46,450 nt of DNA. Origin: Candidatus Gastranaerophilales bacterium (GTDB lineage: Bacteria > Cyanobacteriota > Vampirovibrionia > Gastranaerophilales > Gastranaerophilaceae). This document shows, one piece after another, positions 5,815 to 34,515 of this stretch. The stretch's first letter is position 1; each line of letters begins with the position of its first letter. Under the pieces are notes generated by a model. That model was not told the DNA's origin. It searched no databases and was given only the letters and a program-made list of their open reading frames with translations. The DNA lies in NCBI GenBank assembly GCA_944324405.1, contig CALUWF010000010.1, positions 1 to 46,450 of the forward strand. The letters are read 5' to 3'. The position numbers were made by a program, and so were the translations under genes.

Positions 5815-6207
5815 TTAGGCTTTGTGTCTTAATTTTCTTATTATATTATTAAAATCGCGCTGCGAAATATCATATTTATTACAAATAAATTGCAGCGTCT
5901 GAAAGGCTAAATCCCAAAAATGCACAACCGGCATTTGTTTTGAATTGTAAACCCCGGCGTCATATATTGATTTATCGGGTTTATTTCCGCATAAAAAATC
6001 CAGCTTAACCCCCCAGCCTTTTGCGTATCTAACTTTTGAAAGGCAAATAGTATCCCCTTCGGTCATTTTTTTAATTTTATCCGTTGAAAGAAATTTTTCA
6101 TAGTCGCAAATTGCTTGATTTAGAGCGTTTTTTGCCTCCGGCGAAATTTTTTTATCATATAAATTAGCGTCAATCACAAGATTTGCACAAAAGTTAATAT
6201 CGTTCAT
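5815..6207 (-). CDS. Hypothetical protein, 130 residues
   Basis: I do not recognise this family. The product is soluble, with no signal peptide or membrane segment, and contains four cysteines. The C-terminal third (FICNKYDISQRDFNNIIRKL) is basic and helical and could be a short HTH-like or nucleic-acid-contacting end, but that is only a guess. The ATG follows AAAGG on the minus strand. It converges on the flavin reductase, 10 bases from its stop; the AAGCCT/AGGCTT hairpin across both ends is too weak to call a terminator with confidence. Confidence 0.7.
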   Translation of the reverse strand: MNDINFCANLVIDANLYDKKISPEAKNALNQAICDYEKFLSTDKIKKMTEGDTICLSKVRYAKGWGVKLDFLCGNKPDKSIYDAGVYNSKQMPVVHFWDLAFQTLQFICNKYDISQRDFNNIIRKLRHKA

Positions 6208-7274: not shown

Positions 7275-7834
7275 TATACACCTGCTTTCTCTATTAGGCC
7301 CATACCCATTTCAAGAGCTTTGTAGTTAAGTTCTCTTAATTCGGGTTTTGCGTCAAATTTTTTGCCAAGAGCTTTTTCCATGGCGTTTTTAATATCGCTC
7401 AATTGCAGAACGTTTGTTGCACTCAGTAATACACCGAGAACAATGATGTTGAATACTCTTGCGCTCAACTGCTCGTTTGCAATTTTATTTGCTTCAACCG
7501 AAATAATGCTTTTAGCATTGCAAACAGGTTTTTTTGTACAAACGGATGAGTCGTAAATTACAGTTGAATTTTCGCTTACATAAGTTGTACATCTGTCAAT
7601 TGCACGGTCAGAGAGCATTATTACGATATCGCCTTTTGAAAATCTCGGCTCGCCGATTTTTTCATCCGCGATTTGACAGAAAGCAATTGAAACACCGCCC
7701 CTTTGTTCTACACCGAAGTTAGGGATGTAAAGAATTTCTTTACCTGCTTCATAGCCTGCTTCAACAAGGATTTTTGCAACACTTTGGACGCCCTGTCCGC
7801 CTTCACCTGCTAAAACTATTCTTGTTCTTGCCAT
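7274..7834 (-). CDS. korC: 2-oxoacid:ferredoxin oxidoreductase, gamma subunit
   Basis: A 186-residue protein of the POR gamma family. The N-terminal glycine motif (LAGEGGQGVQ, residues 8-17), the tyrosine-rich YIPNFGVEQRGG and the downstream VIMLSD region are family landmarks. In four-subunit enzymes this is a separate chain supporting the CoA- and thiamine-diphosphate-containing core. It lies 5 bases after the beta gene and overlaps the delta gene by one base. Confidence 0.92.
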   Translation of the reverse strand: MARTRIVLAGEGGQGVQSVAKILVEAGYEAGKEILYIPNFGVEQRGGVSIAFCQIADEKIGEPRFSKGDIVIMLSDRAIDRCTTYVSENSTVIYDSSVCTKKPVCNAKSIISVEANKIANEQLSARVFNIIVLGVLLSATNVLQLSDIKNAMEKALGKKFDAKPELRELNYKALEMGMGLIEKAGV

Positions 7835-7839
7835 AATTA

Positions 7840-8595
7840 TTACTCCAATCCTTCTCTTTGGACAAACTCTTTAACTTCAAAGAATTCTTCCATAGTTTTT
7901 AATCTGTCCCATGTTTGAACGTTATTTGTTCTCCAGTTTAAGGGGCATACAGAGAGAACTTCAACAAACGAAAATCCGCCCATATCAACGTTTTTAAGAG
8001 CTTTTTTAAATGTTGTTTTTAATTTTCTTAAATTAGAAACAGAAGCTCTTGCAACGAAAGATTTGTTAGGATCAGCAATTGATGCAACCATTTCGGCACC
8101 TTTTGCGGGACGACCCGTAACGTCGCAGTCACGACCGTAGGGTGTGGTTTCCGTTTTTTGACCCGGCATTGTGGTAGGCGACATTTGACCGCCCGTCATA
8201 CCGTAGTTAGTGTTATTTGCAACGATAATAAGCAGATTTTCACTTCTGACGGAAGCATTTACAAGGTGTTGAGAACCAATTGCAAGACCGCCGCCGTCAC
8301 CCATATATGCAATACCGACTAAATCGGGATTTGCACGGGTTACACCGTAAATAACCGGAGTTGTACGACCGTGGTGTGTTTGAACCGTATCAACATTCAT
8401 ATAATTCCAGGAAAGCAGAGAACAGCCGATGTCGCAGCCAAAAACCGCTTTATCATTCAACTCAAGTTCATCAATAGATTGAGCAAGAGTTTTTAAAATC
8501 ATACCATGACCACAGCCCGGGCAAAATTTAGATGCGCCAACCTCAGCGTTTTGCGCTTTTGCGAGCCTTGGTCCTTTTTCTAGCATTTCAATCAT
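7840..8595 (-). CDS. korB: 2-oxoacid:ferredoxin oxidoreductase, beta (TPP-binding) subunit
   Basis: A 251-residue thiamine-diphosphate subunit. It shows FCPGCGHG near residues 24-31, the pyrophosphate-binding segment YMGDGGGLAIG followed by ANNTNYGMTGGQ, and the family's TTPYG and cysteine-containing C-terminal part. It catalyses oxidative decarboxylation of a 2-oxoacid to the acyl-CoA together with the alpha chain. The length fits KorB/VorB rather than the longer pyruvate enzymes. It lies 26 bases downstream of the alpha gene. Confidence 0.93.
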   Translation of the reverse strand: MIEMLEKGPRLAKAQNAEVGASKFCPGCGHGMILKTLAQSIDELELNDKAVFGCDIGCSLLSWNYMNVDTVQTHHGRTTPVIYGVTRANPDLVGIAYMGDGGGLAIGSQHLVNASVRSENLLIIVANNTNYGMTGGQMSPTTMPGQKTETTPYGRDCDVTGRPAKGAEMVASIADPNKSFVARASVSNLRKLKTTFKKALKNVDMGGFSFVEVLSVCPLNWRTNNVQTWDRLKTMEEFFEVKEFVQREGLE

Positions 8596-9790: not shown

Positions 9791-10957
9791 TTATTTAGAC
9801 AAGTTTTTCTTTATTCTTGCGTCTGCTGCGGATTTTATTTTATAAAGATTGTTAAAATCCATATCCGGCGTAAGGTGAAGCTTTTTACGCTGTGTGCTTG
9901 CAAATTCACTTATTGTCAAAAACTCGGGAATAAGCCTTTCCTTTGGCGAAGAGGGCCCCTTTTTCCTTTCATGTTTGTATGCAGCCGTTGTATATGCAAT
10001 AAATTCATTTCTTAGCTTTAATCTTGCGGCGTTTTCAGGATTTAAAGGATTATCGTCAACAGGTAAAAGCGGCTTTAAGATTTCTTTTATCTCTTCGTAC
10101 TCCGGATGTACGGCCTTACCTTGCAATATTTTATACGGAATGTCTTCTAACTCTTTAAAAATCGCAACATCCTTACCCAAAATTTGAATTTCACCCGTTA
10201 TTCCGTCGGGAAACTCGACTAAAATATGAATTGCGGTGTAGCCCGTTTCATTTCTTGTTATTGATTCCGATGCAAAGGTGCCGAATTTTTTATAAGAAGC
10301 TTTTGCAAGGTTGTGAAGTTTGGTTTGGCTTACATATTGAAACTTTTTATCCATTGGAATGTGGTTTTCAACCTCAACTATTTTAAGCTTACCCTCACTT
10401 TGAATATAGTCAATAAGCGCATCAATTACCGTGTCGGCACCGCCTTTTAATCCGTTACCCAAAATAATTCTGGCGCCCGTCAGGTCATGAAGATTGTTAA
10501 TTACACTTTCTTTTGAATACAAAAATTTCTGGCTTGCTTTTTCTCTTATTGAATTTGCACCCTTGGTGCGGCTTTCCAACTTAAAAACAGGATGCTCATC
10601 ATCACAAGGCATGCCATCCTGCGGCCTAAGAGGGCCAAGCACTTTTCTTAGAATATATTTAAGATCATTTGTATCACGATTTGCCATAGTGTATATACTA
10701 TGTGCCAAACCGTTTGATATCGTTCTTTCTTTTCCGGTTAAATCTTTTGAACCCGCCTTTGCCGTTTTTTCAAGCGCCTGCGGTTCAAATGTTTTTGCGG
10801 GCAGATTTTTACCTCTTGATGTAAAGGAAACACAGTCGTTTAAAAGCGGTTTAAGCCGCGGAGCATTAAACGTACTTGTGCTCATAACGGAGTTATTTTT
10901 TGAATTATCGATGCGAGGCGCAAAGACATTAATATTGTGAGTAAAAATTTTAAGCAT
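9791..10957 (-). CDS. RelA/SpoT-like nucleotidyltransferase domain protein
   Basis: A 388-residue protein. Residues about 120-285 match the (p)ppGpp synthetase domain: R130-x-K132 with SIREK (136-140), DLTGAR (158-163), GYTAIH (239-244), and E256-I-Q258 followed by LEDIPYK, equivalent to the EHxxxYK end of small alarmone synthetases. There is no HD hydrolase, TGS or ACT domain, so it is not the housekeeping Rel. The first about 110 residues are basic and low in predicted order; VSFTS at 43-47 is a weak match to a tag seen in other proteins here. The SD is AAAGGTGG. It follows yraN by 55 bases. It could make an alarmone, or pyrophosphorylate another target as toxic SAS proteins do; no antitoxin-like neighbour is evident. 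Confidence 0.7.
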   Translation of the reverse strand: MLKIFTHNINVFAPRIDNSKNNSVMSTSTFNAPRLKPLLNDCVSFTSRGKNLPAKTFEPQALEKTAKAGSKDLTGKERTISNGLAHSIYTMANRDTNDLKYILRKVLGPLRPQDGMPCDDEHPVFKLESRTKGANSIREKASQKFLYSKESVINNLHDLTGARIILGNGLKGGADTVIDALIDYIQSEGKLKIVEVENHIPMDKKFQYVSQTKLHNLAKASYKKFGTFASESITRNETGYTAIHILVEFPDGITGEIQILGKDVAIFKELEDIPYKILQGKAVHPEYEEIKEILKPLLPVDDNPLNPENAARLKLRNEFIAYTTAAYKHERKKGPSSPKERLIPEFLTISEFASTQRKKLHLTPDMDFNNLYKIKSAADARIKKNLSK

Positions 10958-11012: not shown

Positions 11013-11357
11013 CTATATCGTAATGTTTTCAATAAATTCAATTTTGTTATCAAGAATTGATACGGCACTTATCCTATAAGAGCGGCACTTTTCTTTGGAT
11101 TGCGAAAGATAATATTGTGCGCATGAAATAATTTTTTCGAGTTTTGATTTTGTTATTGCTTCAAATGGCATGCCATATGCGTTTGTTGTTCTGTATTTTA
11201 CTTCGACAAAATATATTATATTACTCTTTTGTGCAATTATGTCAACCTCCCCGAAGCGTGAAAAGCGAAAGTTTGTATCAAGGATTTTAAAACCTCTTTT
11301 CAAAAGAAATTCTTTTGCTTTATCTTCTCCCAGTTTACCTTTAAGTTTGTTTGACAT
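11013..11357 (-). CDS. yraN: YraN family (UPF0102) protein
   Basis: A 114-residue protein with the YraN restriction-endonuclease-like fold. LGEDKAKEFLLKRGF is followed by FGEVDIIAQK and FVEVKYR, the conserved E-x-D...E-x-K core. The frame stays open upstream through the antisense strand of gatA, but the ATG at 11357 begins the conserved part (MSNKLKGKLGE), leaving a 40-base divergent gap to gatA. Precise cellular role of the family is not established; a DNA repair or processing function is usually suggested. No strong SD. Confidence 0.9.
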   Translation of the reverse strand: MSNKLKGKLGEDKAKEFLLKRGFKILDTNFRFSRFGEVDIIAQKSNIIYFVEVKYRTTNAYGMPFEAITKSKLEKIISCAQYYLSQSKEKCRSYRISAVSILDNKIEFIENITI

Positions 11358-13914: not shown

Positions 13915-14421
13915 ATGAGCGGATTAAGCGGTCAAGGGCTTATGGCACAAGCCATTTACGGACTTACAAACAATTTTGCGGTATTAAGCGCAGGCTCATC
14001 AGGCGGATTGACTTTAGATCAGATAATAAACCCGTCTGACGAAGTAAATAAAAACAATATTAATGCAAGCTTTCAAAGCTACTTAACACAAAATTTTTCA
14101 AGCATTGATGCGGACGGCGACGGAAAAATAAGTGCAACCGATTTGCAGCAATACACAAACCAACTTTCCCAAAAAGGCTTGAGTTATCAGGAACTAATGC
14201 AGCTATGCTACAGCGGCAGTGCAAGTTCCACGCTTGAAGAAGTACTTGCAAATTTTCAAGAAATTGACAAAGACGGCGACGGCCGGGTAACAAACCAGGA
14301 AATTGCCGCATATGGTATGGATGAAGAAATAGAAGAAATGGAAGAAAAATATCCGAAATTTCAGGCTACAAATATTTCAAATTATGTAGATAACGACGAT
14401 TACACTTCATCTTCAACGTAA
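13915..14421 (+). CDS. EF-hand calcium-binding protein
   Basis: A 168-residue protein with two canonical EF-hand loops: DADGDGKISATD (residues 65-76) and DKDGDGRVTNQE (118-129), each with acidic flanking helices. The N-terminus (MSGLSGQGLMAQAIYGL) is Gly/Ala/Leu-rich but lacks a charged signal-peptide start, so the export route, if any, is not obvious. The tail is acidic and Ser/Thr-rich. Calcium binding is well supported by the loop residues; the biological role is unknown. The 3' end overlaps the convergent rsmD by 9 bases. Confidence 0.85.
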   Translation: MSGLSGQGLMAQAIYGLTNNFAVLSAGSSGGLTLDQIINPSDEVNKNNINASFQSYLTQNFSSIDADGDGKISATDLQQYTNQLSQKGLSYQELMQLCYSGSASSTLEEVLANFQEIDKDGDGRVTNQEIAAYGMDEEIEEMEEKYPKFQATNISNYVDNDDYTSSST

Positions 14422-33924: not shown

Positions 33925-34515
33925 ATGATTACTAGAATACAGAGCAACAACAACACAGTTAATTTTGGTGCGCTTAAATTAAACAAAGGGGCACAAAATT
34001 TTCTTACAAAGGCTGATAATTTTTCAAGTGTGCACCAGAGGCTTGCACTTGGAGTTTTCGGACTTATTGTCCAGCCCGCAATTGATTTAAAAAACAAAGA
34101 AGTTGATGAAGATACAAGAAAAGTATCAGCCCTAAGGAGTGCCGCAAAGGCAATCATCGGTACCACAACGGGCATTATAGTACGCGGCGGCTGTATAAAA
34201 GCTGCCGAACTAAAATTCGCAAAAAGAGATTCAAACGGAGCTGTTTTAAAAAACGCGAAAAAAACAGTGATTGATGAAAACAAAATTTATAAAACCTTTA
34301 AAAAAGGTTTTGATTCGCTAAAACTGGATGACAAACAGTTGAAAGAAGCAATTAACCGCGTACCATCCGTTATAGGTACAATTGCCGCTCTGTGCGTTAT
34401 GATTGCCACAAACTTCTTGGTAGATGCCCCTCTTACAAATAAAACAATGGAAAAACTTGAAGAAATAATGGCAAAAAAGCAGCAAAAAGAAAGTGAAGGT
34501 GCAAAGAATGTCTGA
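33925..34515 (+). CDS. Unknown membrane-associated protein with N-terminal NFG tag
   Basis: A 196-residue protein of unknown family. Residues 10-16 read NTVNFGA, a tag shared with the 38338 gene. Hydrophobic helices lie at about 60-75 (weak), 80-95 and 150-168 (PSVIGTIAALCVMIATNFL), separated by charged segments. The C-terminus is Lys/Gln/Glu-rich. No signal peptide. The next gene overlaps by 8 bases, so the two products are probably made and used together. The SD is AAAGAAGG. Confidence 0.7.
   Translation: MITRIQSNNNTVNFGALKLNKGAQNFLTKADNFSSVHQRLALGVFGLIVQPAIDLKNKEVDEDTRKVSALRSAAKAIIGTTTGIIVRGGCIKAAELKFAKRDSNGAVLKNAKKTVIDENKIYKTFKKGFDSLKLDDKQLKEAINRVPSVIGTIAALCVMIATNFLVDAPLTNKTMEKLEEIMAKKQQKESEGAKNV

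What the first reader, a model, noticed from the sequence alone, without database searches (positions are those of the whole stretch)
9791..10957. Stand-alone RelA/SpoT-like synthetase domain with a long N-terminal extension
All core synthetase residues appear present (R130/K132, SIREK, DLTGAR, GYTAIH, E256), but there are no hydrolase or regulatory domains and the N-terminal 110 residues match nothing I know. It could be an alarmone synthetase with an unusual localisation region, a toxic SAS, or an exported effector.
Basis: partly seen in the sequence, partly recalled or inferred. Interest (0 to 1): 0.6.

Follow-up and report, generated by a model that had tools for sequence, protein, structure and literature searches.

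The report
Tagged alarmone synthetase-like enzyme in gut Melainabacteria
This gut bacterium makes a stand-alone enzyme of the kind that produces bacterial stress nucleotides, and its disordered front end carries a short sequence tag that also sits on a dozen unrelated enzymes of its relatives, so the tag is probably an address label and may mark proteins for export.

Summary
The ORF at 9791-10957(-) has a RelA_SpoT domain (Pfam E 1e-7), and its AlphaFold model matches whole RelQ (Z 13.5) and RelP (Z 12.7). All named core residues are present and nearly invariant in 46 relatives.

The 'unknown N-terminal 110 residues' need correcting. Residues ~77-110 are the ordinary first helix of a small synthetase. 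Only 1-75 are extra, and they are predicted disordered. They contain a 17-residue block, LxPLxxD(T/C)VSF(T/S)(S/G)RxK, conserved while its flanks drift. In sister genera the same tag (YPNLAPLxxDTVSFSG) sits on about a dozen unrelated families, including HNH-like, LRR, PolyA-polymerase-like and phosphomutase proteins. A strict pattern gives 60 hits in 117 genomes against 3 in the control, and 48 of 50 examined are N-terminal.

The domain family splits cleanly: a tagged, partnerless clade with GYxxxH (this protein) and a clade of 320-4355 aa effector-like proteins with GYxxxQ, mostly followed by a ~140-aa partner gene. This genome has one of each, plus a long RSH.

These genomes carry a second type III export gate, which may be the exporter; that link is inferred. 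I favour a RelP/RelQ-like nucleotide pyrophosphotransferase with a lineage-specific sorting tag, possibly exported. Product and export are untested.

The parts
9791..10957 (-). Stand-alone RelA/SpoT synthetase-like protein, 388 aa
10964..10969 (-). Shine-Dalgarno-like AGGTGG, 6 nt upstream of the ATG
   Evidence: read directly
10739..10957 (-). N-terminal extension, residues 1-73; predicted disordered, no hydrophobic signal segment
   Evidence: pLDDT 25-32 over residues 1-70; highest 15-residue Kyte-Doolittle mean 0.53
10808..10858 (-). N-terminal tag, residues 34-50 (RLKPLLNDCVSFTSRGK); shared with unrelated proteins in sister genera
   Evidence: mean pairwise identity 0.56 against 0.20 and 0.19 for the flanks; pattern search; families
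9932..10729 (-). SYNTH domain, residues ~77-342, with R130, K132, S136, K140, D158, R163, Y240, H244, E256, Q258
10256..10357 (-). Family-specific insertion, residues 201-234, between strand 3 and the acceptor-binding GY motif; contains a helix and invariant Y208
9794..9931 (-). C-terminal tail, residues 343-388, with conserved DFNNLY..K..AD helix
8622..9716 (-). Conserved downstream neighbour: 2-oxoacid:ferredoxin oxidoreductase alpha subunit (KorA-like), 97-99% identical in relatives; context only
   Evidence: synteny, identities; name from sequence character
11013..11357 (-). Conserved upstream neighbour, YraN/UPF0102-like; context only (no antitoxin)
   Evidence: synteny; name from sequence character

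Best explanation
The protein is a small-alarmone-synthetase-type enzyme. It binds ATP through R130/K132/S136/K140, uses D158 and E256 for metal, and moves the pyrophosphate to the 3'-hydroxyl of an acceptor nucleotide stacked on Y240. The acceptor is most likely GDP or GTP, because the canonical H244 is kept. A 34-residue helical insertion next to the acceptor site may change acceptor choice or regulation. The first ~75 residues are a flexible leader holding a short tag that directs this enzyme, like other tagged enzymes of the lineage, to one common destination outside the bulk cytosol. The likeliest destination is export, with the lineage-wide second type III export apparatus as candidate exporter. 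Shown here: domain, fold, residues, conservation, the shared tag, the clade split, and the presence of a second type III export gate. Inferred: catalytic activity (about 0.8), tag as sorting signal (about 0.7), export (about 0.5), type III route (about 0.3).
For: Pfam RelA_SpoT. Profile matches to RelP/YwaC at 7e-10 and to RelQ. Model aligned over the whole of RelQ, Z 13.5, RelP 12.7, CapRel 11.9, SaEAS 10.9, Tas1 9.1. K132, D158, Y240, E256 and Q258 in 46 of 46 clade members, R130 in 45. Purifying selection. Tag block conserved against drifting flanks. Tag pattern 60 hits against 3 control in 117 genomes, 48 of 50 N-terminal, on 12 sequence clusters including HNH-like, LRR, PolyA_pol and phosphomutase proteins. 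Own genome holds a sister-clade effector-like protein of 808 aa with a related 'GDSVNFSK' block and a partner gene. Second export gate: FHIPEP in 116 of 117 genomes, the own genome with two full-length types; FliP in 116 of 117, own genome two; FliMN, FliO, FliP, FliQ, FliR, YscJ/FliF by Pfam in the own genome.
Against: No activity or localisation data exist. The gene is single-copy, syntenic and under purifying selection, which fits a housekeeping enzyme as well. Some tagged proteins look like ordinary metabolic enzymes (phosphomutase, CCA-enzyme-like). In the query's own genus a strict tag search finds little beyond this gene. No known export domain is present, and the link between tag and type III apparatus is only co-occurrence in the lineage. 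R260 and H272, usual in RelP and the sister clade, are replaced by L and D.
Confidence: 0.5

Rival explanations
1. Housekeeping cytosolic small alarmone synthetase. The N-terminal tag is a docking or regulatory motif inside the cell (for example binding a scaffold, compartment or sensor), and the enzyme tunes (p)ppGpp together with the long RSH.
For: Single-copy, in 15 of 15 genus genomes and at the same locus in all relatives read; dN/dS 0.05-0.10; keeps the canonical GYxxxH; a long RSH with a hydrolase-like N-terminus is in the same genome, so product could be removed; neighbours are energy or amino-acid metabolism genes in several genera; some tagged proteins resemble metabolic enzymes.
Against: Evolves much faster than its KorA and KorB neighbours (about 56% against 97-99% identity); the tag is on effector-like families (HNH-like, LRR) and a related block is on the own-genus 808-aa protein.
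Confidence: 0.35
2. Toxic small alarmone synthetase (toxSAS) of a toxin-antitoxin or phage-defence system.
For: Fold similarity to CapRel (Z 11.9) and Tas1 (Z 9.1); a sister clade of the same domain is mostly followed by a ~140-aa partner gene.
Against: No adjacent partner in any tagged-clade member with enough flank, apart from two 800-aa members of the sister clade with a related block; fixed synteny and universal presence in the genus; no PADLOC, phage or plasmid match.
Confidence: 0.06
3. Catalytically dead SYNTH-fold protein kept for binding only.
For: R260 and H272 of canonical synthetases are replaced; weak model confidence around 237-239 and 260-280.
Against: All residues that contact ATP, metal and acceptor base are invariant or nearly so over 46 divergent members, which a dead enzyme would not need.
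Confidence: 0.08

Closest known systems
RelP/YwaC and RelQ/YjbM small alarmone synthetases
   Same: Stand-alone SYNTH fold over its whole length including C-terminal helices; R-x-K, S-I-x-x-K, D-x-x-G-x-R, G-Y-x-x-x-H and E-x-Q motifs.
   Different: Extra 75-residue leader with tag, 34-residue insertion next to the acceptor site, C-terminal tail, E-I-Q-I-R-T changed to E-I-Q-I-L-G, L-E-H to L-E-D; about 15-22% identity; far below the NCBIfam YjbM cut-off (19.7 against 320 bits).
Exported alarmone synthetases (EAS: SaEAS, VpEAS, AaEAS) and the T6SS effector Tas1/Apk1 (PMC12691689)
   Same: SYNTH fold (SaEAS Z 10.9, Tas1 Z 9.1) with N-terminal parts devoted to export; isolated Sec-type EAS loci also lack immunity genes.
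   Different: No Sec signal peptide, WXG/LXG, Rhs/PAAR, DUF4157, MuF or XopAD part seen here; a lineage-specific tag instead; keeps GYxxxH.
tRNA-modifying toxSAS (FaRel2, CapRel)
   Same: SYNTH fold (CapRel Z 11.9); residue spacing matches FaRel2 R64/K66/S70/K74 as reported in PMC11782079.
   Different: No antitoxin gene or fused antitoxin domain; the ~75-residue leader is disordered in the model.
XopAD-type effectors with Rel-like domains (named in PMC12691689)
   Same: Precedent for a Rel-like domain in proposed type III effectors.
   Different: No sequence comparison was made here; the architecture here is short and tagged.

Membership tests
Small alarmone synthetase (broad sense: stand-alone SYNTH domain) | SYNTH nucleotidyltransferase fold | tested here: met
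   Pfam, model match to RelQ and RelP, profile match
Small alarmone synthetase (broad sense: stand-alone SYNTH domain) | No HD hydrolase, TGS or ACT domain | tested here: met
   Only RelA_SpoT above cut-off
Small alarmone synthetase (broad sense: stand-alone SYNTH domain) | Conserved ATP, metal and acceptor residues | tested here: met
Small alarmone synthetase (broad sense: stand-alone SYNTH domain) | Makes (p)ppGpp or a related alarmone | not testable with these tools
   needs enzyme assay
RelQ/YjbM subfamily | NCBIfam equivalog model score above cut-off | tested here: not met
   19.7 bits against 320
RelQ/YjbM subfamily | C-terminal helices forming a tetramer | tested here: inconclusive
   helices 285-297 and 307-332 are in the monomer model; oligomer not modelled
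toxSAS toxin-antitoxin module | Adjacent antitoxin or immunity gene, or fused antitoxin domain | tested here: not met
   neighbours are YraN-like (or none called) and KorA-like in all genomes read; no partner-profile hit next to H-clade members
toxSAS toxin-antitoxin module | Toxic on expression | not testable with these tools
   needs growth assay
Exported alarmone synthetase (EAS) | SYNTH fold related to Apk1/SaEAS | tested here: met
   SaEAS Z 10.9, Tas1 Z 9.1
Exported alarmone synthetase (EAS) | Known export signal or domain | tested here: not met
   no Pfam domain besides RelA_SpoT; no hydrophobic leader; no dedicated signal-peptide predictor was available
Exported alarmone synthetase (EAS) | Protein is exported | not testable with these tools
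   needs localisation experiment

The most novel reading that the evidence does not exclude
The block YPNLAPLxxDTVSFSG is a new sorting signal, worn by a repertoire of unrelated enzymes across gut Melainabacteria and read by a second, flagellum-independent type III export apparatus. The alarmone synthetase in this window is one of its cargoes, so these common gut bacteria release a nucleotide second-messenger synthetase into neighbours or the gut environment.
Probability: 0.3. Interest if true: 0.87.

Novelty: new variant of a known kind. Interest (0 to 1): 0.63.

Why it matters
The searches I ran in open-access papers found no report of effectors or of a type III export apparatus used for secretion in Gastranaerophilales. 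A recurrent N-terminal tag on unrelated enzymes gives a direct handle: it predicts a cargo list by sequence alone and can be tested with a reporter. The clean split of one synthetase domain into a tagged, partnerless clade and a partner-linked effector-like clade, with three diagnostic active-site changes, makes the question of how alarmone synthetases become effectors testable within one bacterial family.

Tried and rejected
The first tag pattern used a wrong code for serine and found nothing; it was corrected. Very loose motifs ([IVT][NST]Fx[GSA]) gave only about 3-fold N-terminal enrichment, so the stricter LxPLxxDTVSF was used. PHROGs and PADLOC gave nothing convincing. tblastn against phages and plasmids gave nothing. 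An eCIS marker (Pvc16_N) was absent from 117 genomes, but nothing rang in the controls either, so this shows nothing. Weak eIF2D-like PDB hits of the N-terminus (E 0.5) were taken as chance. BFVD gave phage SYNTH proteins by fold only. An alignment attempt with trimmed tails misnumbered residues (second half) and was redone.

Full report
What was checked. The window lies in contig C10 of a 1.80 Mb genome. Close relatives in GTDB are Candidatus Gastranaerophilales MAGs, including Ca. Galligastranaerophilus, so this is a gut Melainabacterium. The ORF 9791-10957(-) is real: ATG start, Shine-Dalgarno-like AGGTGG, 388 aa. Pfam gives RelA_SpoT at E 1.1e-7 over residues 129-260 and no other domain.

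Fold. An AlphaFold model from six sequences has mean pLDDT 69, low over residues 1-75 and mostly 80-90 from 81 to 340 with weaker loops. Its best structural matches are RelQ (5ded, Z 13.5, 177 residues, model 81-342 on RelQ 3-195) and RelP (Z 12.7). CapRel (11.9), SaEAS (10.9), long RSH enzymes (about 7-10) and Tas1 (9.1) follow. A profile of 27 relatives finds RelP/YwaC in the PDB at 7e-10. Helix 82-110 is the usual first helix of a small synthetase, so the truly extra N-terminus is about 75 residues.

Active site. In 46 members of the query's clade K132, K140, D158, Y240, H244, E256 and Q258 are invariant, and R130 and R163 nearly so (H244 defines the clade). R130/K132/S136/K140 match in spacing the ATP-binding R64/K66/S70/K74 that PMC11782079 describes for FaRel2. 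PMC6793942 states that the G-loop after strand 3 binds GTP or GDP. In this family that connection holds an extra ~34 residues with a helix and an invariant Y208: the alignment to RelP/YwaC stays at chain residue 125 where this family has ~33 positions.

Conservation. An orthologue is present in all 15 genus genomes, the own one included, and lies upstream of KorA-like genes, mostly behind a YraN-like gene, in the five relatives read. dN/dS is 0.05-0.10 over residues 74-388 and 0.16-0.21 over 1-73. The protein is about 56% identical to its orthologues, whereas KorA and KorB are 97-99% identical; several other small proteins of the window also diverge fast, so speed alone proves little.

The tag. 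Within the leader, residues 34-50 have mean pairwise identity 0.56 among 15 orthologues, against 0.20 before and 0.19 after. In sister genera the block reads YPNLAPLxxDTVSFSGxxxK. A strict nucleotide pattern for LxPxxxDTV(S/T)F finds 60 sites in 44 of 117 family genomes, against 3 when read backwards. Of 50 sites examined, 48 lie within 100 residues of the first start codon. After removal of the tag region the proteins fall into 12 BLAST clusters. Besides the synthetases these include HNH-like, LRR-bearing, PolyA-polymerase-head and phosphomutase proteins by Pfam (the HNH and LRR matches are weak), and a ~335-aa family with a kinase-like glycine-rich GEGQEA stretch (by eye only). This shared, position-fixed block on unrelated bodies is best read as a sorting or docking signal. 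In the query's own genus the tag is found on this gene but hardly elsewhere with a strict pattern.

Two clades. A profile search finds the domain in 176 of 241 genomes of the order at E <= 1e-8; the long RSH also contributes some matches. Of 69 distinct domains, 46 have GYxxxH, 22 have GYxxxQ and one neither; the H and Q groups form a perfect split in a tree (local support 0.93). Positions 260 (hydrophobic against mostly R) and 272 (D against H) follow the same split. The H clade is 315-511 aa, nearly always tagged, and never followed by a partner gene where flanks allow a check. The Q clade is 320-4355 aa and mostly followed within 400 bp by a ~140-aa gene of one family; L025 and L032 have room but no partner hit. 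Q-clade proteins carry other parts such as an HD domain (L058) or a calpain-like stretch (L061). This genome has both: the window gene (H), and an 808-aa Q-clade protein with partner at C1:350123-352983 whose N-terminus reads GDSVNFSK. It also has a long RSH at C12.

Candidate exporter. FlhA/SctV-type genes are found in 116 of 117 family genomes, in two score classes (about 850-885 and 710-736 bits). The lower class is present in most, including genomes without the higher one; the own genome has both. FliP/SctR behaves the same way. In the own genome the second set includes FliMN-like, FliO, FliP, FliQ and FliR genes on C20, and FlhA-like, FliH-like and FliF/YscJ-like genes on C3 (the FliH assignment was tested on the G021 homologue). 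A 501-aa protein with a tag-like N-terminus lies next to the C3 set. Di Rienzi et al. [quoted passage not shown] a search for Melainabacteria with type III secretion found three papers, none on this subject by title. That tagged proteins use this apparatus is inference.

Reading. The most economical account is a RelP/RelQ-like pyrophosphotransferase with a lineage-specific sorting tag. Export is somewhat more likely than a purely cytosolic role because the tag is shared with effector-like families, but the fixed locus, purifying selection and the canonical H244 would fit a housekeeping enzyme nearly as well. A toxin-antitoxin role is unlikely.

Noticed in passing
L122:5124-7550 and 7568-7984 (own genome C1:350123-352983): 808-aa protein with a C-terminal Q-class synthetase domain, glycine-rich middle part, tag-like N-terminus, and a 138-aa partner gene 18 bp downstream.
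   Followed up: partly
L057-L062, L139-L141: Giant proteins of 1600-4355 aa with an internal or C-terminal synthetase domain, almost without known Pfam domains, each followed by a ~140-aa gene of one family; the partner may be immunity protein or chaperone.
   Followed up: partly
own genome C3:17539-24168 and C20:10136-14163 (L221, L222, L228): Second type III export gene set besides the flagellar one on C1, conserved across the family, also in genomes with a single FliP.
   Followed up: partly
L172:653-3035: Three tandem ~250-aa paralogues, each with its own N-terminal tag and related bodies.
   Followed up: no
L175:909-2222 and L167:1411-3033: CCA-enzyme-like (PolyA_pol head) and phosphomannomutase-like enzymes wearing the same N-terminal tag; not clear whether they are extra copies.
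   Followed up: no
window 33925-34515 and 5815-6207; own C3:24251-25756: Small or unknown proteins with tag-like N-terminal stretches (NTVNFGALKLN, DINFCANL, RINFTSNK...ARINFGARRKK).
   Followed up: no
window 13915-14421: 168-aa protein with two EF-hand motifs (Pfam E 1e-10), 84-96% identical in relatives, unusual for so fast-evolving a neighbourhood.
   Followed up: no
L124, L128, L129, L130, L133, L067, L065: In several genera the tagged synthetase gene lies next to a large pyruvate:ferredoxin-oxidoreductase-like gene, KorA-like genes or ilvN/ilvC-like genes; names from sequence character only.
   Followed up: no
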